Assembly: GCA_944384505.1 (NCBI GenBank)
Contig: CALWTQ010000039.1
Coordinates: 1-34,565 of the forward strand
Source: an uncultured Mediterraneibacter sp.
GTDB lineage: Bacteria > Bacillota > Clostridia > Lachnospirales > Lachnospiraceae
DNA length: 34,565 nucleotides
Direction: 5' to 3'
Positions 1 through 34,565 of this stretch are shown one piece after another (the first letter of the stretch is position 1; each line of letters starts with the position of its first letter). The translations under genes and the position numbers were made by a program. Below the pieces are notes generated by a model. It was not told the origin of the DNA. It saw only the letters and a program-made list of their open reading frames with translations, and made no database searches.

Positions 1-542
1 CCCTCAAGATTTTCAGCGGATTCCTCCAAAGTCACATCTCCCGGCTGTCCCCTTCCCCAGAAAGTATGCTCAAACCACCCGCTCCGCTTCCTGCGCATTC
101 CCAGACGGAAGTGTCACTGCCCTAAACAGAGCTGTAAAGTGCAGTTTGGCGCGGCTTGTAGGCTTTCCATTGCGAAAGTCTTCTGGCCGCGCCGTACTTC
201 TGGAAGCTATATATTCACTGGCTTCCGTCTTGAAAACCCCAGAAAACAGATCCATTTCGGGAAAAATTCTGCGGGGATGGAGGATGGCGACGGGCGCCTT
301 CGAAAGGGGATTAGGGAAACTTGAAGCTGCGGCTGCGGATGTTAGGACAGGAGGGGAGATTGTCTGAGCGAAGTGAGTTGCTCCCCTCCTGTCCTTGCAT
401 CTAATCCGCAGCCGGAACTTCTTAGTTTCACTTATCCCCTGTAGCGAAGCCCTGAGCCGTCCTCCATCCCCGCAGAATACGTCCTGGCAAAGGAACTGTT
501 TTCGGACGTTTCGCATCCGAACGTTAGTGAACTTTATAGCTG
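1..542 (-). repeat. Large double-hairpin repeat, copy 1 (cut by window edge)
   Basis: This is non-coding repeat DNA shared with 4677-5269, 10329-11090 and 34428-34565. The right end (523-542) is GTTAGTGAACTTTATAGCTG, the same terminal repeat as in the other copies. Hairpin A runs from about 205 to 542, with opposing arms such as TTCTGCGGGGATGGAGGA against TCCTCCATCCCCGCAGAA. Its apical loop at 360-379 reads TTGTCTGAGCGAAGTGAGTT and sits on the stem GACAGGAGGGGAG/CTCCCCTCCTGTC. A GC-rich hairpin (GGCGCGGC/GCCGCGCC, 148-193) separates A from hairpin B, which starts inside the window and continues past base 1. The repeat ends 11 bases beyond the thioesterase stop. Open frames across it change between copies and look spurious. 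I do not recognise a named family. Strand is given relative to copy 3, which is called plus. Confidence 0.85.
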
Positions 543-1173: not shown

Positions 1174-2865
1174 TTAACCGCCCGCGATCAGCACCTCTTT
1201 TCCGCGGAATGCGAATCCGTATCTGCGGATTCTTTCCTTTGAAATCCCTCTGGATATAAGTACCGCCTCGTATTTTCTTTCATCAATCTGTCTCAGTGCT
1301 GTCCTCGCAGTATCCTCCAATGAATTTTCTTCTGACAGATCCTGCACTTTGAACTCCAGGATTACGGCATTATCCTTCTGATTCTTTGGCTCCAGCATGA
1401 CGTCATATCTCCCGAATCCGCTTTCCCTGTTTGACGTAATTATATATCTGTTTTCAAGTTCTACCATCAGCCCCAGAATAAATCCATGATAAAAACGCTC
1501 AGGCTCATTTCCTTCTGTTCTGTTTCCGGTCATATCGAAAAAGCTGAATGTACTCAATGCCACACGATTCATATATACGTTCATCGCTTTCAGGTCATCG
1601 GACAGCAGTGCCTTTATAAAATCATTATAACCGCTGTCATAATCTGTAAACCATCCGCGTATCATGTCTTCAAACATCATCCGAACTTCCTGGTTCGTCA
1701 GGGACAGTGTATAAAATACGCGTCCCGTCGCATCATCAAACTCACATTTTTCCACTTTCAGATATCCGCTGGCGAGGAACAGACTCCAGACAGCACTTTC
1801 ACGTTCTGACAATTGATTATAGACGATCTGCTCATCAATCTGCGTCTTTATATATCCACCGCCCAGCAGGTCTTCAAACTGAATTTTTATATCTTTACTT
1901 CCTTCTCTTATCAGACGGTCCGCGAGATAATTGGAGCTTGTATTTGCCCAATATGGCCGCAGCAGGCCCGTGTCAAGAAAGTTTATAATCGACCACGGAT
2001 TATAAATATCCGATATATTCCCAAACGTAAATCCATCGTACCATCTTTTCACATCATCCCGTCTTTCGGAATAGCCATACTCATCAAGCGCAGCAAACAC
2101 TTCCTCTTCCGTAAACCCAAAGGCTTCTGCATATTCCTGTGACGTCGTTGTAATTACCTTCAGATTATTCAAGTCTGAAAAAATGGACTCCCTGCTCCCC
2201 CTTGTTATCCCGGTCATAAGAGCCCGTTCCAGATATGGGTTATTTTTAAAGGCAGCATTAAAAAAACTTCTTGTAAATGCCGCAAGTTCATCCCAGTATC
2301 CTCCCTCGTATGCCTCCAGCATAGGCGTATCATATTCATCCAGCAGTATGATCACTTTTTTCCCGTAATACCTCTGCAGATACCCCGAAAGACGTCTTAA
2401 AGAGATTGATGCCTCCGCGTCTTCCATATCAGAAGATACCCGGTTAAAATATTCCTTTTCTCTGCTGTTGAGCAGATCTCCTTCCAGAAGGAATCCGTAA
2501 TGATTATATAGATCAACCACAGACTCGCAGATCTTTTTCCTCACTTGTGAATATGACTTTTCTTTGATGTCGGAAAAGCTGAGCGAAATCACAGGATATG
2601 TGCCCTGGATCTTCCTGTACGCTTCATATTTCCATATGTTTAATTCCCGAAAAAGTTCTCCGTTCTCGCTCAGTTCTGCTGAAAAGAAATTCTTGAGCAT
2701 ATCGAGCGTCAACGTTTTCCCGAATCTTCTCGGGCGGGTAATCAGTGTAACCCTGTCCGCACTCTCCCACCACTCCCTGATAAAAGATGTTTTATCTATA
2801 TAGAATATATTGTTCTTTATGATATCTTCAAATTCCTGATATCCAATTGCTACTTTTCCTGACAT
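1174..2865 (-). CDS. AAA-ATPase-like / PD-(D/E)XK nuclease protein, paralog 1
   Basis: This 563-residue protein has two parts. The N-terminal AAA-ATPase-like domain carries a Walker A-like RPRRFGKT (44-51), a Walker B VIILLDEYDT (171-180) and a conserved TGITR further on. The C-terminal part has a PD-(D/E)XK nuclease signature: Asp488 in RYDVML and Glu504-Phe-Lys506 (ExK). This architecture (AAA-ATPase_like plus PDDEXK_9, formerly DUF1703) is common and multi-copy in gut clostridia and Bacteroidetes. Its biological role is not established; defence or mobile-DNA functions are only guesses. It lies 36 bases downstream of its paralog, with an AAGGA ribosome site, so the two are probably co-transcribed. 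Both proteins end in nearly the same residues (RRYGFAF.GKEVLIAGG), and the DNA around the stop codons is nearly identical, which points to tandem duplication. Confidence 0.9.
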   Translation of the reverse strand: MSGKVAIGYQEFEDIIKNNIFYIDKTSFIREWWESADRVTLITRPRRFGKTLTLDMLKNFFSAELSENGELFRELNIWKYEAYRKIQGTYPVISLSFSDIKEKSYSQVRKKICESVVDLYNHYGFLLEGDLLNSREKEYFNRVSSDMEDAEASISLRRLSGYLQRYYGKKVIILLDEYDTPMLEAYEGGYWDELAAFTRSFFNAAFKNNPYLERALMTGITRGSRESIFSDLNNLKVITTTSQEYAEAFGFTEEEVFAALDEYGYSERRDDVKRWYDGFTFGNISDIYNPWSIINFLDTGLLRPYWANTSSNYLADRLIREGSKDIKIQFEDLLGGGYIKTQIDEQIVYNQLSERESAVWSLFLASGYLKVEKCEFDDATGRVFYTLSLTNQEVRMMFEDMIRGWFTDYDSGYNDFIKALLSDDLKAMNVYMNRVALSTFSFFDMTGNRTEGNEPERFYHGFILGLMVELENRYIITSNRESGFGRYDVMLEPKNQKDNAVILEFKVQDLSEENSLEDTARTALRQIDERKYEAVLISRGISKERIRRYGFAFRGKEVLIAGG

Positions 2866-2901: not shown

Positions 2902-4599
2902 TTAACCGCCCGCGATCAGCACCTCTTTCCCGCAAAATGCGAATCCATATCTGCGGATGCATCCCACGGGAACTCCCTGTGCTTTAAGCTCCCCTGCATA
3001 ATTCTTTTCCTCAATCTGCTTCAGCGCATTTTCCGCCGCATCTTCCAGAGTCTTTTCCCTGCGCGGATTGAATACCTTAAACTCTATAATCATCGCATCT
3101 GCCCCCTCTTTCCGGGGAGTCAGCATCACATCATATCGTCCGAACCCGCTTTCTCTGTTCGATGTCAGCCTGTACCTGTCCGACAATTCTACCAAAAGTC
3201 CGAGCACAAATCCATGGTAGAACTTTTCCGGCTCAGCGGTTTTCCCGTCTCCCGATGTATCAAAGAAGCTGAACACACTTTGCGCTATGCGGTTCATATA
3301 TTCATTCATCGCTTCCAGATCTCCCGCAAGCAGCGCCCTGATAAACTCATTATAGCTTGACGCCGACTGAGAAAACCAGCCTTTTACCATATACCGGAAC
3401 ATCACTTTCACTTCAAAATTGGTCAGTTCAAGTGTATAAACTTTCTTCCATTCTTCATATCCGTTCTGACAGGTATCCACGTCTTTCACTTTAAGATACC
3501 CTCCTGCAAGCAGCAGACTCCACACAGCACTCTCATCCAGATCCAGCTGTTGATATACAATCTGTTCATCAATCTCCGTTTTCACATTCCCTCCGGCGAG
3601 CAAACACTGGAAATCTTCTTTTAGCCTTGCAGATCCTTCCCTGATCAATTTACCGGCGAGACTGTTGCTGCTTGTATTTGCCCAGTACGGCTCTGCTTTC
3701 TTATTCCTGAGATAATTTATAATGGACCATGGATTATAAATGTCTGATATGTTTCCAAATGTAAATCCATCATACCAGAACTTTACTTCCTGCTGCCTGT
3801 CCGACAGATCAAACTCACTGAGAGCCCCGCGGACCTCCTCCCCGGTGAATCCAAAACATGTCTCGTACTTGGGGACAGTCGTGGTTACTACTTCAAGATT
3901 ATTCAGGTCAGAAAAAATAGACTCTTTACTGACCCGTGTGATTCCTGTCATAAGGCCTCTTTCCAAATACGGATTCGTCTTAAATGTACAGTTAAACATA
4001 CTTCTTGTAAATGCAGCAAGCTCTTCCCAGTAGCCATTAATATAAGCTTCCTGCATCGGTGTATCATATTCGTCCAGAAGAATTATCGTTTTCTCCCCAT
4101 AATATCTGCACAGATAGTCCGACAGACTGCGAAGAGCAGATGCTGCCGTACTGTCATCCATTCCGGATGTCACTTTATTATAATAATCTTTTTCTTTTTC
4201 GTTCAGGAGTTCCCCTTCCAGGAGAAAATCATATTTATTATACAGCTCTTCTATTGTCCGGCAGATGCTTTCCCTCGCTGACAGATAAGTCTGATCTTTA
4301 ATCCCCGCAAAAGTCAGGGCTATAACAGGATATTTTCCCTGCAGTCCCCGGAATCTTTCATTCTTCCATATATTCATGCCCTCAAACAAGTCACTCCGTC
4401 CAGAATAATTTACAGAAAAAAACTTTTCTGTCATACTCATGTTCAGCGTCTTCCCGAAACGCCTCGGACGGGTAATCAGTGTCACAATATCCCCTGAATC
4501 CCACCATTCTCTTATAAAATCCGTCTTGTCCACATAAAAATAATCGTTAACGCGGACCGTCTCATAATCCTGATGCCCGATTGCCGCTGTTCTCGCCAT
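2902..4599 (-). CDS. AAA-ATPase-like / PD-(D/E)XK nuclease protein, paralog 2
   Basis: This 565-residue protein has the same architecture as its downstream neighbour. RPRRFGKT is at 44-51, a Walker B IILLDEYDTP lies near residue 175, TGITR follows, and the C-terminal nuclease signature is Asp490 (RYDVML) plus Glu506-Phe-Lys508. The two proteins align over their whole length with long identical runs, for example the NISDIYNPWSIIN region. It is the first gene of the pair. A promoter with a perfect 15-bp inverted repeat lies just upstream (4621-4670). The ribosome site (GAGG) is weak. A frameshifted remnant of a third family member lies at about 31013-31192. The cellular role is unknown. Confidence 0.9.
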   Translation of the reverse strand: MARTAAIGHQDYETVRVNDYFYVDKTDFIREWWDSGDIVTLITRPRRFGKTLNMSMTEKFFSVNYSGRSDLFEGMNIWKNERFRGLQGKYPVIALTFAGIKDQTYLSARESICRTIEELYNKYDFLLEGELLNEKEKDYYNKVTSGMDDSTAASALRSLSDYLCRYYGEKTIILLDEYDTPMQEAYINGYWEELAAFTRSMFNCTFKTNPYLERGLMTGITRVSKESIFSDLNNLEVVTTTVPKYETCFGFTGEEVRGALSEFDLSDRQQEVKFWYDGFTFGNISDIYNPWSIINYLRNKKAEPYWANTSSNSLAGKLIREGSARLKEDFQCLLAGGNVKTEIDEQIVYQQLDLDESAVWSLLLAGGYLKVKDVDTCQNGYEEWKKVYTLELTNFEVKVMFRYMVKGWFSQSASSYNEFIRALLAGDLEAMNEYMNRIAQSVFSFFDTSGDGKTAEPEKFYHGFVLGLLVELSDRYRLTSNRESGFGRYDVMLTPRKEGADAMIIEFKVFNPRREKTLEDAAENALKQIEEKNYAGELKAQGVPVGCIRRYGFAFCGKEVLIAGG

Positions 4600-4676: not shown

Positions 4677-5269
4677 CAACTATTTAGCGCACTAACATTT
4701 TTTGTAACTCACGTCCGGAAGCGGAGCGGATGGTTTGCGATACGTATTCTGTGAAAGGGGACAGCCGGGAGATGTTCCCTTCCCCAGAAAGTATACTCAA
4801 ACCATCCGCTCCACTTCCTGCGCATTCCCTGTCGGAATGTTACTGCCCCAAATGAGCTGTAAAGCACGAATTGGCGCGGCTTGAGGACTTTCAGCTGAGA
4901 AAGTCTTCCGGCCGCGCCTGCTTCTTCTGTCAGCTATATATTCACTGACTTCTGGTTTGAAGAGCCCAGAAAACAGCCCCATTTCAAGAAAAATTCTGCG
5001 GGGCTGGAGGATAGCGACGGGCGCCTTCGGAAGGGGGTTAGGGAAAGTTAAAGCTGCGGTGACAGACGTTAGGGCTGACGGTGGAATTGTCTGAGCGGAT
5101 GCGAGTTGTCCACCGTCAGTCCTTGCATTTAGTCTGTCGCCGCAGCTTTTAGTTTCCCTTATCCCCTGGAGTGAAGCCCTGAGCCATCCTCCAGCCCCGC
5201 AGAATATGTCTTGGCAAGGACTCTGTTTTCGGACGTTTTACACGGGGAGGTTAGTGAACTTTATAGCTG
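4677..5269 (-). repeat. Large double-hairpin repeat, copy 2 (complete, short B arm)
   Basis: This is a complete 593-bp copy. The left terminus CAACTATTTAGCGCACTAAC (4677-4696) and the right terminus GTTAGTGAACTTTATAGCTG (5250-5269) are imperfect inverted repeats. Hairpin A spans about 4931-5269, with the apical loop TTGTCTGAGCGGATGCGAGTT at 5087-5107 on the stem CTGACGGTGGA/TCCACCGTCAG. The GC-rich hairpin is at 4873-4918. Hairpin B (about 4677-4862) lacks the long apical arm seen in copies 1 and 3 and closes at GGGAGATGTTCCC, so that arm behaves as a module. The right end runs into the MetE-like gene and encodes its last residues. Confidence 0.88.
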
Positions 5270-6398
5270 TCCCGCCCCACACTTCTTCTGCAATCTCTTT
5301 TACCAGTCTCAGCTTCGCCCACTGTTCCTCCTCTGTCAGTTTATTCCCGATCTCACAGGATGCGAATCCGCACTGAGGGCTGAGGTAAAGCCGGTCAAGG
5401 GGCACATACTCCTCCGCTTCTTTAATTCTCTGCTTCACAGTTTCTTTTGCTTCCAGTTCCGGTTTCTTACTGGTAATCAGACCGAGAACTACTTTCTTTT
5501 CTCCCGAGATATATTTCAGTGGTTCGAATCCCCCGGAGCGTTCATCATCGAATTCGAGATAATACGCAGAGACATTTTCTTCGCCGAACAAATACGGAGC
5601 GACCGGCTCATATCCTCCTGAGGACGCCCAGGTGGAATGATAATTTCCTCTGCATACATGCGTTGTGACTGTCAGGTCTCCCGGCAGGCCCTCAAGCGCC
5701 AGATTGTTCAGGTGCAGGAACTTCTGCGCCTCCTTTTCCACACTGCCGCCCCAGGATTCGAGCGCTTTTCTGTATCCCGCGTCACAGAGCATTCCCCAAG
5801 TGCAGTCGTCAAGCTGCACATTCCTGCATCCTGCGTCATACAGCTCTGTGATCACCGTCCGGTAGGCTCCCGCGATGTCCCGGATCAGCTCCTCTTCATC
5901 CGGATAATACTTCACTGTATTTTTCCCGTTTTCCTCGCGGAACAGCTCTGCCAGCAGCTGAGCCGGCGCCGGGATTGTCTGACGCGCCAGTGTATTCTCA
6001 TCTTCAAACTGCTTTACGAACTTAAAATGTTCTACGAAAGGATGCCCCTCTCCGCTGATCTTCCCTGTCACCTGTACAGAACCGTGAGTCGTCTCTTCTC
6101 CGTGGAAGTAGTATCCATGATCCAGCTCCAGACGTTCCAGTCCTACCAGCCCCCACATAAAATCAAGATGCCAGTAGCTCCTTCTGAACTCTCCGTCTGT
6201 AATCACATGATATCCTGCCGCCTTCTGTCCCGCAATCAGTTCTTCAATCGCTTTATCCTCGATTTCTTTCAGTTCTTCCGCCGGAATCTTTCCGTTCTCA
6301 TAGTCTGCTCTCGCTTTTTTTAAATGCTCCGGCCTTAAAAAACTCCCCACATAATCATACCGAAACGGTGCCTGCAGTCTTTTCTTATTTTCACTCAT
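5238..6398 (-). CDS. MetE-like (YxjG/YxjH-type) cobalamin-independent methyltransferase
   Basis: This 386-residue protein belongs to the short, C-terminal-domain-only branch of cobalamin-independent methionine synthases. It has a single barrel with the zinc ligands HxC in THVCRGN and Cys in SPQCGF. These enzymes move a methyl group to homocysteine or a related thiol; the methyl donor for this branch is less certain than for full-length MetE. I chose the ATG at 6398 because AGGAGG lies 9 bases before it; the frame is open 9 codons further upstream. The protein ends in GTAIKFTNLPV, and these last codons plus the TAA are written by the terminus of repeat copy 2. Relatives I know usually end near EEVWG, so the tail is probably acquired. 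A LysR regulator lies directly upstream. Confidence 0.85.
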   Translation of the reverse strand: MSENKKRLQAPFRYDYVGSFLRPEHLKKARADYENGKIPAEELKEIEDKAIEELIAGQKAAGYHVITDGEFRRSYWHLDFMWGLVGLERLELDHGYYFHGEETTHGSVQVTGKISGEGHPFVEHFKFVKQFEDENTLARQTIPAPAQLLAELFREENGKNTVKYYPDEEELIRDIAGAYRTVITELYDAGCRNVQLDDCTWGMLCDAGYRKALESWGGSVEKEAQKFLHLNNLALEGLPGDLTVTTHVCRGNYHSTWASSGGYEPVAPYLFGEENVSAYYLEFDDERSGGFEPLKYISGEKKVVLGLITSKKPELEAKETVKQRIKEAEEYVPLDRLYLSPQCGFASCEIGNKLTEEEQWAKLRLVKEIAEEVWGGTAIKFTNLPV

Positions 6399-6474
6399 AT
6401 TCTGTCTCCTCCTATGTTCTGTCATTCTATTCTGCCACGATATTTTTGAACTCTTTGTATCCGTTCACGGTACG

Positions 6475-9000: not shown

Positions 9001-9262
9001 GGGAGATCTGATCCCCCGTAAAACAAGGGACCGGTTCTCCCGGCGGTACCACCCTAATTAACAATATATCCTGGCCTTCAGGCCCTGATCCATATACTGC
9101 TCACTCTTTTGTCCGTAACGCAGATCTGCGCCGCACTTTCATGCAGAAGCTCCCGGGCCGGTTCTACCGAGTCCTGCAGGAGCTCTCACCAGGCGCTCCC
9201 TCTCTGGGGCATTCTCTCAGATATACTAATCCCGTTCATTGCTTTTCGTAACTGTGATTCTA
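8987..9262 (-). promoter_or_regulatory. T-box riboswitch leader of proS (specifier CCG, proline)
   Basis: On the minus strand the T-box sequence AGGGTGGTACCGCC (9042-9055) is followed by a terminator, GCCGGGAG...CTCCCGGC (8998-9044), with a TTCTTTTATA tail. Stem I contains AGAGAGGGAG and CTGGTGAGAGCTCC. On its 3' side GTAGAA-CCG-GC places the specifier codon CCG at 9159-9161, which is proline and agrees with proS downstream. Uncharged tRNA-Pro would stabilise the antiterminator and allow proS expression. The specifier is assigned by eye. Confidence 0.93.
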
Positions 9263-9292: not shown

Positions 9293-10234
9293 TCATTTAA
9301 AAACTTCCTCATCAAACAGCGGCGTGGAGAAATATCTCTCTGCTGTATCCGGAAGCACTGTCACTACATTCTTTCCTTCGCCGAGCTTTCTTGCCAATTT
9401 CAGCGCGGCCGCCACGTTAGTCCCCGATGAGATCCCGCACATGATCCCCTCTTTTGAAGCCAGATCCCGCGATACGCGGATCGCCTCCTCGTCTGTCACA
9501 ATGCAGATATCATCATAGATATTCATGTTCAGAATCTCCGGAATCACGCCGTCTCCGATCCCCATCTGGAGATGGGTCCCGATTGATCCGCCTGAGAGGA
9601 TCGCCGCATTTTCCGGCTCTACCGCCCAGATCTCTATATCCGGATTCTTCTCTTTCAAAACCTCTCCGATGCCGGTGATTGTTCCTCCGGTTCCAATTCC
9701 TGAGCAGAAACCATCGATCCTGCAGTCCGCCTGCTCAAGAATCTCAATCGCTGTCTGGCTTCTGTGCACTGCCGGGTTCGCCGGATTTTCAAACTGCTGA
9801 GGAACAAAAACATTCGGATCTTCCTTCGCCATACGGAGCGCTGTGTTCAAGCATTCCTCAATACATGCGCCGATGTTGCCCGCGTCGTGGATCAGAATCA
9901 CTTCCGCTCCATAATGACGCACCAGCTTTCTTCTCTCCTCGCTCACCGAATCAGGCATAATAATCTTTGTCTTGTATCCGCGCACCGCGCCTACCAGCGC
10001 CAGGCCGATTCCCTGGTTTCCGCTTGTAGGCTCAACGATAATCGTATTCTCATTAATCAGACCTTTCTCCTCCGCGTCACGGATCATATTATATGCGGTT
10101 CTCGTCTTAATCGATCCTCCCACATTAAGTCCCTCAAACTTCACCAGAATCTGCGCGCTTCCCTTTTCTGCCATACGCTCCAGACGAATCAGAGGCGTAT
10201 TTCCCATTGCTTCAAGAATATTATTATAAATCAC
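9293..10234 (-). CDS. cysK: Cysteine synthase (O-acetylserine sulfhydrylase)
   Basis: This PLP enzyme condenses O-acetylserine with sulfide to give cysteine. The PLP lysine lies in GGSIKTRTAYNM, the substrate loop is TSGNQGIGLA, the phosphate-binding loop is GIGTGGTITG, and the C-terminal LPDTAERYFST is typical. KTRTA in place of the common KDRIA is a mild variant. I prefer the GTG at 10234 (313 residues, starting as M-IYNNILEAMGNTPLIRL). This is the usual CysK N-terminus, and the promoter -10 at 10282-10287 would leave only a few leader bases before the upstream ATG at 10270. GGGAAAGG precedes the GTG. No terminator is visible at its 3' end. Confidence 0.93.
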   Translation of the reverse strand: MIYNNILEAMGNTPLIRLERMAEKGSAQILVKFEGLNVGGSIKTRTAYNMIRDAEEKGLINENTIIVEPTSGNQGIGLALVGAVRGYKTKIIMPDSVSEERRKLVRHYGAEVILIHDAGNIGACIEECLNTALRMAKEDPNVFVPQQFENPANPAVHRSQTAIEILEQADCRIDGFCSGIGTGGTITGIGEVLKEKNPDIEIWAVEPENAAILSGGSIGTHLQMGIGDGVIPEILNMNIYDDICIVTDEEAIRVSRDLASKEGIMCGISSGTNVAAALKLARKLGEGKNVVTVLPDTAERYFSTPLFDEEVFK

Positions 10235-10281
10235 TGTTGTTTCCACGCCTTTCCCGAAAACTAATTGCATTTAACCGTATT

Positions 10282-10310
10282 ATTATATTCCTTCATATCA
10301 AAGAACTCAA
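10282..10310 (-). promoter_or_regulatory. Promoter of cysK
   Basis: On the minus strand TTGAGT (10305-10310) and TATAAT (10282-10287) are 17 bases apart. The -35 is only 18 bases from the terminus of repeat copy 3. Confidence 0.7.
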
Positions 10311-10328
10311 CTGGTTTTCAGAAATTTT

Positions 10329-11090
10329 CAGTTATAAAGTTCACTAACTTACCTGTGCGAAACGTCCGAAAACAGGGGCTATTCTCAAGACGTATTCTGC
10401 GGGGACGGAGGACGGCTCTGGGCTTCGCTCCAGAGGATAAGGGAAACTACAAAGTACCGGATATGGATTAAAGGCAAGGACAGCCGGGGCTTAACTCGCT
10501 GACGCTCAGACAAGCGCCCCATCTGCCCTAACATCCGTATCCGGTACTTTAAGTTTCCCTAACCCCCTTCCGAAGGCGCCCCTCGCCATCCTCCATCCCC
10601 GCAGAATTTATCTTGAAATGGGGCTGTTTTCTGGGCTTTTCAGGCCGAGAGTTAATGAATTATAGCTGTCAGAAGTGTGGCGCGGCAGGCAGGCTTTCGA
10701 AGTAGAAAAGCCAACAAGCCGCGCTAGTTGTGCGTTTCAGCCTGTTTAGAGCGGTAACAGTTCCGACAGGGAATGCGCAGGAAGGGGAGCGGACGGTTTG
10801 AGCATACTTTCTGGGGAAGGGGACAGCCGGGAGATGTGACTTTGGAGGAATCCGCTGAAAATCTTAAAGGGCGAAGAGCTGTTGTTAAGCGGCGCGCAGG
10901 GACTTGTCTGAGCAAAGCGAGTTTCCCTGCGCGCCGCTTTGCCCTTAAACAGCTCTTCGGCCTGTTAGATTTTCCGGATTCTGGAACGGAGCATCGCACG
11001 GCTGTCACCTTTTCACAGAATACGTATCGCAAAACATCCGCTCCGCTTCCGGACGTGAGTCACAGGAATTGTTAGTGCGCTAAATAGCTG
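10329..11090 (+). repeat. Large double-hairpin repeat, copy 3 (complete, long form)
   Basis: This is the longest complete copy, 762 bp. Its termini are CAGTTATAAAGTTCACTAAC (10329-10348) and GTTAGTGCGCTAAATAGCTG (11071-11090). Hairpin A covers 10329-10668 and carries the loop motif on the minus strand (10493-10513). A GC-rich hairpin follows (10679-10724). Hairpin B (about 10736-11090) carries the loop motif on the plus strand (10904-10923, TTGTCTGAGCAAAGCGAGTT) on a stem of at least 14 bp. The two outer arms share ordered blocks CACTAAC, ACGTCCG and GTATTCTG, so the whole element is an extended imperfect inverted repeat. It fills the gap between cysK and the ABC exporter stop, and no credible gene lies inside. 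Confidence 0.9.
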
Positions 11091-11099
11091 TTGAACTGT

Positions 11100-12830
11100 T
11101 CAGAGTTCCCACTTCTGGCTGACCGCCTGTAACTCCACCATATGCGGATATATCTTCCCTCTTTCCATCAGTTCCTCCGGTGCACCCTGCTCGGCGACTG
11201 TGCCCCCTGAGAGTACGACTACTTTATCCGCGCCGCTGACGGTCCGCATACGGTGTGCGATGACAAGCACGGTTTTGTCCCGGATCAGTCTCGACAGAGC
11301 AGTCTGGATTAATGTTTCGTTCTCCACGTCAAGGCTTGCTGTCGCCTCGTCCAGCAGTATGATGGGAGCGTTTTTCAAAAAGGCTCGCGCAATTGAGATC
11401 CTCTGCCGCTCTCCGCCGGAGAGTTCGCATCCGTTCTCCCCGATCATGCTGTGATACCCGTCGGGAAGTTTTGCGGCGAATTCCTCACAATTTGCCAGTC
11501 TGGCAGCCGCAATCACCTCTTCGTCGGTGGCGTCTTTTCTGCCGATCCTGATGTTTTCCATGATCGTGTTATTAAACAGTGTCACGTCCTGGAATACGAT
11601 AGAGTACAGCGACAGTAATGTCTCTGGTTCTATTTCTGATATGTCCATTCCGCCGACCGTGATTCTGCCTTTCTCTGTGTCCCAGAATCGTGCGGCCAGA
11701 CGCGATACAGTGGTTTTTCCGCCGCCGGACGGTCCGACCAGGGCAGTCACCTGCCCCTGCTTTGCCGTAAATGACACATCTTTGAGTACCGTTTCTCCGG
11801 TATTGTAGGCGAAGGCCACATGATCAAATACGATGTCATACCCTTTGTTTGTCAGCCGGCTGCTTCCCGTCTGTACAGGCTGTTCCAGGATTTCATTCAT
11901 ACGGTTTATATTTGTCCTGGTGGAGATGATCGCAGCAAGATTCTGCAGCGCGCCTTCCAGCGGGGCGTACAGCCTGGAAGCCACGAGCAGGAACATGAAG
12001 AACAGAGGGATGTCGATCTCTCCCCGAATGAGCAGCGAGGATCCTGTCAGGGCAACTGTCGCGATCCCGAATTTTAAGATCAGGGTTGAGGATACGACGA
12101 AAAGCGCAGTCCCAAGTTCAGTAATAATATGACGTTTTTCTGCATAATCAATCTTCTTGTCAAGCCCCTTCACATAATCCGTTTCCGCATTATTTGCTTT
12201 TAGATCCTGCAGACTTTCGATGCACTCCTGCACGCCGCTCTCAAGGGCTACATTTGCTTCTACGGATTTGCGGTTGAAATACTCCTGTATGCGGGCGGAG
12301 AAGAACGTAATAACGAACGCAACCGGCAGAACCCAGACTGCTGCAAGGGCCATCCTCCAGTCGTAGGCAAACAGGCAGATCGAAATCAACGTAGTTGATA
12401 TCAGAGAGCCGGCCAGAGCGGGCACATAGTGGGAAAATGCAGTCTCAAGCGTCGCGCAGTCGCCCATAATGGAGTTTGTCAGATCTGCAAGATCCTTTTT
12501 CCCAAAGAAGGACAGCGGGATTTTCCTCAGCTGTTCCGCCAGGGAAATCCGCCTTACCCCGCTCTCTACATAAGTAGCCAGATAGGTGGCGTTATATTGA
12601 AACCACGTCACAATAAATATAAGGACAAGGCACACGAGCGCCCCTGCCGCATAGAATACAATACGGCTTCCGCTTACTCCCCCGTTCATCATATCAATAA
12701 CGAAATAATATAGCAGTCCGACAGGAATCATAAACGATATATCCTGCGCCACGCAGGCAGCGCAGCCCTTTATCAGATCAATTGCCCCCTGCCTCGACAG
12801 CGCGAAGCGCCTCTGCAATGTTTTAATCAT
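11100..12830 (-). CDS. ABC exporter half-transporter, second subunit
   Basis: This 576-residue protein fuses an N-terminal six-helix exporter membrane domain (about 1-310) to a C-terminal ATPase. Walker A is GPSGGGKTT, the signature LSGGERQRISIARA, and Walker B IILLDEATASLD with the catalytic Glu. Its start overlaps the stop of the preceding half-transporter by 4 bases (ATGA), so the two are translationally coupled and most likely form a heterodimer. Pairs of this kind export drugs, peptides or lipids, and the IrtAB/YbtPQ-like branch imports siderophores. The sequence does not settle the substrate. The stop lies 9 bases from repeat copy 3. Confidence 0.9.
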   Translation of the reverse strand: MIKTLQRRFALSRQGAIDLIKGCAACVAQDISFMIPVGLLYYFVIDMMNGGVSGSRIVFYAAGALVCLVLIFIVTWFQYNATYLATYVESGVRRISLAEQLRKIPLSFFGKKDLADLTNSIMGDCATLETAFSHYVPALAGSLISTTLISICLFAYDWRMALAAVWVLPVAFVITFFSARIQEYFNRKSVEANVALESGVQECIESLQDLKANNAETDYVKGLDKKIDYAEKRHIITELGTALFVVSSTLILKFGIATVALTGSSLLIRGEIDIPLFFMFLLVASRLYAPLEGALQNLAAIISTRTNINRMNEILEQPVQTGSSRLTNKGYDIVFDHVAFAYNTGETVLKDVSFTAKQGQVTALVGPSGGGKTTVSRLAARFWDTEKGRITVGGMDISEIEPETLLSLYSIVFQDVTLFNNTIMENIRIGRKDATDEEVIAAARLANCEEFAAKLPDGYHSMIGENGCELSGGERQRISIARAFLKNAPIILLDEATASLDVENETLIQTALSRLIRDKTVLVIAHRMRTVSGADKVVVLSGGTVAEQGAPEELMERGKIYPHMVELQAVSQKWEL

Positions 12831-34427: not shown

Positions 34428-34565
34428 CAGCTATAAAGTTCACTAACTTCCGCAGGCAAAACGTCCGAAAACAGAGGCTATTTCTGAGGCGTATTCTGCG
34501 GGGATGGAGGACGGCTCAGGGCTTCGCTCCAGGGGATAAGGGAAACTAAGAAGTTCCGGCTGCGG
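34428..34565 (+). repeat. Large double-hairpin repeat, copy 4 (cut by window edge)
   Basis: It begins with CAGCTATAAAGTTCACTAAC (34428-34447), the A-side terminus, and continues with ACGTCCGAAAACAG, GTATTCTGCGGGGATGGAGG and CTTCGCTCCAGGGGATAAGG. It closely matches copies 1 and 3. The orientation is that of copy 3. The rest lies beyond the window. Confidence 0.85.

What the first reader, a model, noticed from the sequence alone, without database searches (positions are those of the whole stretch)
10329..11090. Large non-coding element made of two hairpins with terminal inverted repeats, present four times
Four copies (1-542, 4677-5269, 10329-11090, 34428-34565) share terminal repeats of about 20 bp, CAGCTATAAAGTTCACTAAC and CAGCTATTTAGCGCACTAAC, identical at 16 of 20 positions. 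The outer arms of hairpins A and B share ordered blocks (CACTAAC, ACGTCCG, GTATTCTG), so the element is one extended inverted repeat folded into two hairpins. It is too long and too structured for a REP sequence and has no transposase. I do not recognise it among named large RNAs or MITEs.
Basis: partly seen in the sequence, partly recalled or inferred. Interest (0 to 1): 0.78.

Follow-up and report, generated by a model that had tools for sequence, protein, structure and literature searches.

The report
Hairpin-carrying mobile element of gut bacteria
The 762-base element is a protein-free, probably jumping piece of DNA, with very many copies in this gut bacterium, built from two related giant hairpins placed back to back whose core keeps an RNA-like shape in several genera of its family, which suggests a transposon that carries a structured RNA of unknown job.

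Summary
The window has four copies; two are cut by contig ends, one has lost its second hairpin core. The genome has 186 matches to one end sequence, 0 to the reversed control: roughly 170-190 copies. A covariance model built only from hairpin B finds hairpin A on the opposite strand, in 34 of 35 Mediterraneibacter loci tested: two inverted copies of one hairpin unit. The model hits 48 of 58 genus genomes and 21 genomes of other genera among 397 Lachnospiraceae. Over 90 hairpins, 48 of 52 pairs show compensatory changes; in the core, G-U far exceeds A-C in one orientation, as expected of RNA. Single-hairpin relatives in genus g47 have 8-bp target duplications and two empty sites; their terminal repeat resembles that of an IS66-family transposon present in this genome. 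Best reading: a non-autonomous, IS66-type, MITE-like transposon carrying a structured RNA of unknown function. Own copies show only traces of target duplications; loci from other genera showed none. No Rfam family, phage or plasmid matched.

The parts
10329..11090 (+). full-length element (copy 3), 762 bp; probable true ends about 9 bp further out on each side
10329..10668 (-). hairpin unit A, closed by its own terminal repeats (CAGTTAT...ATAGCTG); sense strand is minus
   Evidence: sequence, pairs, model hit
10424..10577 (-). conserved core of hairpin A (model R1, 97 bits)
10493..10513 (-). apical loop motif of A (TTGTCTGAGCGTCAGCGAGTT on minus)
   Evidence: alignment
10679..10724 (.). short GC-rich central hairpin C (GGCGCGGC...GCCGCGC)
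10738..11090 (+). hairpin unit B, closed by its own terminal repeats; sense strand is plus
10838..10990 (+). conserved core of hairpin B (model R1, 161.5 bits; this copy was among the 20 sequences the model was built from)
10904..10924 (+). apical loop motif of B (TTGTCTGAGCAAAGCGAGTTT)
1..542 (-). copy 1, inverted, cut by the contig start inside hairpin B; A core 296-448 (+) 98.8 bits, B remnant 1-33 (-)
4677..5269 (-). copy 2, inverted, 593 bp; A core 5023-5175 (+) 119.9 bits; core of B deleted
34428..34565 (+). copy 4, cut by the contig end

Best explanation
The element is a non-autonomous DNA transposon of IS66 type (MITE-like) whose cargo is a large structured RNA hairpin. SHOWN: one hairpin unit (conserved core of about 155 nt, variable palindromic arms) occurs once per element in genus g47 and twice, back to back, in the Mediterraneibacter element; copies are dispersed; the single-unit relatives of g47 have terminal repeats of the type GTWACAGTTCA, 8-bp target duplications and, in two cases, an empty site in the sister species. 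SHOWN: an IS66-family transposon with similar terminal repeats (GTTACTGTTCA) exists in this and a few related genomes, with an 8-bp duplication at one insertion. INFERRED: an IS66-type transposase cuts and inserts the hairpin elements in trans by recognising their ends; two units in inverted orientation became mobile as one 762-bp element and multiplied in this lineage. INFERRED: the core acts as RNA in the orientation with loop GUCUGAGCGAAGCGAGUU. With one unit on each strand, any transcript that runs through the composite contains one sense core, whichever way it inserted. My best guess for its job (probability about 0.3) is that the folded core is bound or processed by a host RNA-binding factor or ribonuclease so that insertions between genes do little harm to neighbouring transcripts.
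For: Copy number. A and B are inverted homologues: and 34 of 35 Mediterraneibacter loci. Covariation: A2, 97.8% of cells paired against 84.6% shuffled, 157 double-change cells against 43.8±5.6, at most 32 when slid; 90 distinct hairpins, 48 of 52 pairs compensatory. RNA-strand signature in the core, G-U against A-C cells in sense orientation: 44:6 (g47, 25 elements), 29:3 (own B, plus), 53:10 (own A, minus), while the antisense folds give 3:7, 13:10 and 17:26. Mobility: empty sites between G103 and G417 with one copy of the 8-bp word; of 28 single-hairpin elements, 14 have 8/8 and 9 have 7/8 matching flanks. IS66 link: transposase PF03050 98 bits and NCBIfam transpos_IS66 160.8 bits, below its cut-off of 180; ends GTTACTGTTCACAC on both sides; related elements in four other genomes have GTTACTGTTCA ends, one insertion with an exact 8-bp duplication. 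Own ends carry a decayed version of a similar repeat: mean score 3.72 against 2.67±0.19.
Against: Own 762-bp copies show no clear target duplication: best offset 0.39 identity against mean 0.27, sd 0.03, over 900 offsets and 25 copies; matched flanks share words barely longer than mismatched ones, 6.17 against 5.82, 29 copies. The IS66-like transposase is in only 6 of 54 genomes searched, one of them a weak hit, and does not track hairpin number: G005 has it with no hairpin found, while G029, G057 and G417 lack it. Its 8-bp duplication rests on one insertion: the copies in G051 and G005 have identical flanks; the copies in this genome, G001 and G355 show none. No pair of exact GTWACAGTTCA ends at transposon-like spacing in G417 or G103, apart from neighbouring short elements. 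28 low-copy loci from other genera showed no such ends with duplications. No orientation bias relative to genes for 33 hairpins by a crude test, which gives no support to a cis role in mRNA. On A2 the number of further pair types was reached by 30 of 500 shuffles. The antisense fold of own B still has slightly more G-U than A-C (13:10). No transcript data.
Confidence: 0.6

Rival explanations
1. A DNA-level foldback MITE only. Pairing of the arms is restored by replication template switching between the two arms (quasipalindrome correction); the RNA is irrelevant.
For: Arms change as blocks on both sides: in g47, 58 of 61 arm pairs have double changes with little strand asymmetry, 28 G-U to 18 A-C. 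In L102/L103, at the same locus in two species of one genus, the core is 93-97% identical but about 90 bp of each arm is only 46-70% identical, and still 27-30 of every 30 bases pair in each species. Template switching is reported to make and repair hairpin stems and to explain asymmetric pair frequencies (PMC8794818, abstract and outline read).
Against: In the core, A-C cells are much rarer than G-U cells in one orientation, for A and B on opposite strands, and motifs outside the pairs are conserved across genera.
Confidence: 0.2
2. A host regulatory or processing RNA family, older than the transposons, that was picked up by transposon ends in Mediterraneibacter and genus g47 and amplified there.
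For: Low-copy hairpins without recognisable terminal repeats in other genera; one kept at the same locus in two species; element at the cysK locus in three species, G000, G033 and G057.
Against: The flanks that I read in other genera showed no common neighbour gene, though no systematic test was made; 10 of 58 genus members gave no hit; no host function known.
Confidence: 0.13
3. A single-strand-DNA element moved like IS200/IS605 or REPIN/RAYT elements, using the hairpins as recognition structures.
For: Own copies lack clear target duplications; hairpins paired in inverted orientation as in REPINs (family knowledge, recalled).
Against: 8-bp duplications and terminal inverted repeats in single-unit relatives. 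A Y1-type transposase was not searched for.
Confidence: 0.05
4. Bidirectional transcription terminators or attenuators spread between genes.
For: Window copies sit between long reading frames or at their ends.
Against: A terminator scan of 10200-11200 found 0 sites, 1.2 expected by chance.
Confidence: 0.05

Closest known systems
MITEs of bacteria (Correia, ERIC, RUP, BOX, QMITE; PMC10969869 and PMC3049150, passages read)
   Same: short, protein-free, terminal inverted repeats, target duplications that wane with age, many copies, transcripts that would fold, thought to be mobilised by the transposase of a related insertion sequence
   Different: larger (762 bp composite), two inverted copies of one homologous hairpin, a core kept with compensatory changes in many genera, arms that change in step on both sides
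IS66 family insertion sequences (Pfam PF03050, NCBIfam NF033517)
   Same: terminal repeat GTTACTGTTCA of the related autonomous element found here, with an 8-bp duplication at one insertion
   Different: the hairpin element has no transposase gene
MRSC-65-2 motif (PMC11109978, section 13 read)
   Same: single long covarying stem, often dozens of copies per genome, proposed selfish element, sometimes near transposases
   Different: over 20,000 examples from diverse phyla with a UYCCGG repeat; its alignment and figure were not available, so identity with this family could be neither shown nor excluded
REPINs/RAYT system (recalled; REP passage in abstract of PMC3733652 seen in a listing)
   Same: two inverted hairpins as the mobile unit, many copies
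   Different: REPs are 20-40 bp; single-unit relatives here make 8-bp duplications
IStrons (abstract of PMC4227781 seen in a listing), TnpB omega RNA and IS110 bridge RNA (both recalled)
   Same: a structured RNA carried by a DNA transposon
   Different: no protein gene in the element; RNA role unproven

Membership tests
MITE / non-autonomous IS66-type element | terminal inverted repeats shared with an autonomous element of the same genome | tested here: inconclusive
   own copies carry a decayed GTWACAGTT and this genome has an IS66-like element with GTTACTGTTCACAC ends: similar, not identical. In g47 the ends are clear but no autonomous element with them was found in G103 or G417
MITE / non-autonomous IS66-type element | 8-bp target duplication, in single-unit relatives | tested here: met
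   23 of 28 g47 elements with at least 7/8 matching flanks (the script's choice of ends rewarded matching flanks), two empty sites
MITE / non-autonomous IS66-type element | 8-bp target duplication at the 762-bp copies of this genome | tested here: inconclusive
   weak excess only
MITE / non-autonomous IS66-type element | no transposase gene | tested here: met
   longest ORF within 10329-11090 is 102 aa, and copies differ by 1-2 base indels
MITE / non-autonomous IS66-type element | partner transposase present where the element is amplified | tested here: not met
   the L178-type transposase is in 6 of 54 genomes without relation to hairpin number; IS66 transposases of any kind occur in 8 of 12 genomes, but of 11 loci scanned for ends only L178 matched (output partly cut)
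Rfam families | score above gathering threshold | tested here: not met
   best sub-threshold hit MIR1858, 46.9 bits against 137 (E 9.1e-7), which I take for a long-hairpin artefact
REP/REPIN (RAYT) | 20-40 bp palindromes | tested here: not met
   units are about 270-350 bp
REP/REPIN (RAYT) | Y1/RAYT transposase in the genome | not tested
   no search made
MRSC-65-2 | consensus sequence and structure of the published motif | not testable with these tools
   figure and supplement not held

The most novel reading that the evidence does not exclude
The core is a new class of transposon-borne functional RNA, older than the ends that now move it. It has been re-armed repeatedly with new palindromic arms and terminal repeats, and it acts in trans or in cis for the element itself, for example by guiding or licensing transposition, or by excising or shielding the insertion at RNA level.
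Probability: 0.15. Interest if true: 0.9.

Novelty: new variant of a known kind. Interest (0 to 1): 0.62.

Why it matters
If true, a single protein-free element makes up roughly 3% of this genome (about 170-190 copies of up to 762 bp in 3.95 Mb, an estimate) and belongs to a hairpin family found in 20 of 334 Lachnospiraceae genera sampled that no Rfam family matched here. It would be a clear bacterial case of a DNA transposon that keeps an RNA-strand-specific structure, and it makes two questions testable: what an RNA does for a non-autonomous transposon, and how very long palindromes diverge strongly in both arms while staying paired. It also explains assembly breaks: both ends of this contig lie in the element.

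Tried and rejected
Known RNA families: no match. Protein coding: rejected, frames are broken by indels between copies. Phages and plasmids: no match by blastn at E 1e-5; viral contigs: no exact match to one hairpin pattern. Terminator: none found. Promoter scan: 2 weak sites against 0.7 expected, not pursued. Cis role by gene orientation: no bias (crude ORF test, 33 hairpins). AAA-ATPase/PDDEXK_9 genes next to copies 1 and 2 as mobiliser: considered, not tested beyond the window. Other IS66 transposases: no matching ends in 10 of 11 loci scanned. Low-copy loci in other genera: terminal repeats and duplications looked for and not found (28 loci). G029: a search for TCTGA.TTTGT ends found both ends in 1 of 9 loci, not pursued. 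First alignment of copies mixed orientations and was discarded and redone. Group 'g47' includes one Mediterraneibacter hairpin (L097); 25 antisense hits were dropped before the count; three g47 elements with misplaced ends were dropped. I first took the middle arms of L102/L103 for unrelated; one search shows 46-70% identity, so I now call them strongly diverged. Papers: the listings showed no title or abstract describing this element; I opened passages of PMC10969869, PMC11109978 (section 13 in full), PMC3049150, PMC13155455 and PMC2864571 and the abstract and outline of PMC8794818. The library holds open-licence papers only.

Full report
OBSERVATION. The window is a complete contig (G000:C39, 34,565 bp) of a 3.95-Mb draft genome of 141 contigs. 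The four copies reported are real. Copy 3 (10329-11090) is complete. Copies 1 and 4 are cut by the contig ends. Copy 2 lacks the core of hairpin B. The same DNA occurs again and again: 40 long places at 82-100% identity when 40 of 341 candidates were scored, 186 matches to one end against 0 for the reversed pattern, 339 matches to a looser pattern that can catch both ends, again against 0. I estimate 170-190 copies; contig breaks and copies with alike ends make this rough. Twenty-six full-length copies (25 own, 1 from G056) align with 89% mean column identity; 33 of 223 predicted pairs in that alignment have compensatory changes.

TWO INVERTED COPIES OF ONE HAIRPIN. Hairpin B cores from at least eight genomes were aligned (A2, 20 sequences) and a covariance model R1 was built. 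On the window it finds B at 10838-10990 (+) with 161.5 bits and, although no A hairpin was used to build it, A at 10424-10577 on the minus strand with 97 bits, as well as the A hairpins of copies 1 and 2. Sixty loci were given to a second search. Of the 35 Mediterraneibacter loci among them, 34 (L001-L034) have one B and one A hit on opposite strands; the other, L097 of G044, has a single hit. Each unit is closed by its own CAGCTAT...ATAGCTG-like repeats. The element therefore reads as two complete units, back to back, with a short GC-rich hairpin between them. In G417 two single hairpins in opposite orientation, each with its own exact 8-bp duplication, lie about 0.6 kb apart (L144), a plausible picture of how such a composite could start.

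DISTRIBUTION. DNA similarity reaches 17 of 58 genomes of the genus; the covariance model reaches 48 of 58 (at most 52 candidates scored per genome and stricter filters, so copy numbers are floors). Among 397 Lachnospiraceae drawn evenly, 23 have a hit: this genome, one other of the genus, and 21 from other genera, from 88 down to 25 bits, with only 7 candidates scored per genome. That pattern had no match in viral contigs, and the element had none in phages or plasmids.

STRUCTURE IS KEPT, MOST STRONGLY ON ONE STRAND. On A2, 28 of 52 pairs have compensatory changes; 97.8% of cells pair against 84.6% after shuffling, and 157 cells change on both sides against 43.8±5.6 shuffled and at most 32 when slid; the number of further pair types is less telling (55 against 50.9, reached by 30 of 500 shuffles). 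Over 90 distinct hairpins (B 29, A 34, g47 19 including L097, other genera 8; 25 antisense hits dropped) 48 of 52 pairs show compensation; in the eight from other genera 94.0% of cells pair against 61.9% shuffled (this alignment was fitted to the model, which favours it). G-U and A-C mispairs should arise equally from single transitions at DNA level, so their ratio can tell the strand. In the core, sense orientation gives G-U:A-C of 44:6 (g47), 29:3 (own B, plus strand) and 53:10 (own A, minus strand); the antisense folds give 3:7, 13:10 and 17:26. In the arms the sense ratio is weaker for g47 (28:18) and own B (39:26) but as strong for own A (49:10). The fold prediction favours G-U pairs in whichever strand is folded, which is why both strands were tested. 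A paper on template switching says that this process also explains asymmetric pair frequencies (PMC8794818, abstract), so the strand test is strong but not proof.

ARMS CHANGE IN STEP. In genus g47, 58 of 61 arm pairs have double changes while only 8 of 56 core pairs do. In genus g16 the same locus in two species (L102, L103) carries cores 93-97% identical, but about 90 bp of each arm is only 46-70% identical in an optimised alignment, and in each species 27-30 of every 30 arm bases pair with the other arm. All 29 single hairpins folded from other genera (L098-L107 and 19 of the 20 loci) have 72-205 concentric pairs, more than the 52 of the core model. Template switching between arms is the simplest cause of such block changes.

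MOBILITY. In genus g47 the L104 hairpin (about 290 bp) is present in G417 and absent from G103, and the L101 hairpin is present in G103 and absent from G417; in both, the empty site has one copy of the word that flanks the element twice, GAAAATCA and TCATCGCC. Of 28 single-hairpin elements with recognisable ends (269-290 bp), 14 have identical 8-bp flanks, 9 differ at one base, 2 at two bases, and for 3 the script placed the ends on an inner palindrome (the choice of ends rewarded both terminal-repeat and flank agreement). Their ends are GTWACAGTTCA and variants. For the 762-bp element the evidence is weaker. No clear duplication: the best offset gives 0.39 identity against a mean of 0.27 and sd 0.03 over 900 offsets. 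But the nine bases outside CAGCTAT resemble GTWACAGTT: mean 3.72 against 2.67±0.19 at 85 control offsets, 11 of 54 ends scoring 6 or more against 1.9% of controls. At the cysK site of copy 3, of 16 other genomes whose sequence I printed, G033 and G057 also hold an element and 14 do not, so this insertion is probably old.

PARTNER. This genome has one IS66-type transposase (PF03050, 98 bits) in a 2,253-bp element with ends GTTACTGTTCACAC on both sides (L178). Relatives of the protein occur in 6 of 54 genomes searched, one of them a weak hit. Of five such elements with ends, those in G051 and G005 have an exact 8-bp duplication, but with identical flanks, so they are one insertion; those in this genome, G001 and G355 have none. 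The similar end sequence and the duplication length point to IS66-type transposition. Against a tight partnership: presence of this protein does not follow hairpin number, and no element with exact GTWACAGTTCA ends and transposon-like length was seen in G417 or G103. Low-copy hairpins in other genera, 28 loci, showed no such ends.

MECHANISM AND VERDICT. I read it as an IS66-type non-autonomous transposon that carries a structured RNA core, doubled in inverted orientation in this lineage. Steps shown: dispersal, two homologous units, conserved fold, target duplications in single-unit relatives, an IS66-type transposon with similar ends. Steps inferred: trans mobilisation, transcription, and any benefit of the RNA. 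The crude test of orientation relative to genes found no bias for 33 hairpins. As a kind it is MITE-like; its size, its double-unit plan and its RNA-like core kept in many genera of one family make it a new variant. The nearest published description that I found is the MRSC-65-2 motif (PMC11109978, section 13 read), whose sequence I could not compare.

Noticed in passing
L039 about 1095-1200; L088 about 1210-1330; L105 about 1180-1400: A second recurrent GC-rich hairpin with a shared run like CGCAGCGGCRCRTAAGGSCGCAAA...ACGCGSCCYAARYGCCGGCG in three Lachnospiraceae genomes, seen by eye; may be another structured repeat.
   Followed up: no
window 1174-2865 and 2902-4599 (-): Two tandem paralogous genes with AAA-ATPase_like (PF09820) and PDDEXK_9 (PF08011) domains lying between element copies 1 and 2.
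   Followed up: partly
window 9023-9248 (-): T-box leader upstream of the prolyl-tRNA synthetase gene.
   Followed up: no
window 5238-6425 (-): The MetE-like reading frame ends inside element copy 2, so the insertion probably supplies its last codons.
   Followed up: no
G417 contigs, positions: Shorter palindromes of about 35-151 bp with the same GTAACAGTTCAG ends, probably further MITEs of the same kind of transposase.
   Followed up: no
L102 and L103, 1358-1778: A hairpin of about 420 bp at the same locus in two species whose middle arms are only 46-70% identical between the species but almost fully paired in each.
   Followed up: partly
window 4677-5269: Copy 2 has lost the hairpin B core, with an altered outer stem arm left behind, as slippage or template switching across a hairpin could do.
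   Followed up: no
L212 and L214: The same IS66-like insertion with identical flanks and identical 8-bp duplication in two genomes of the genus, G051 and G005.
   Followed up: no
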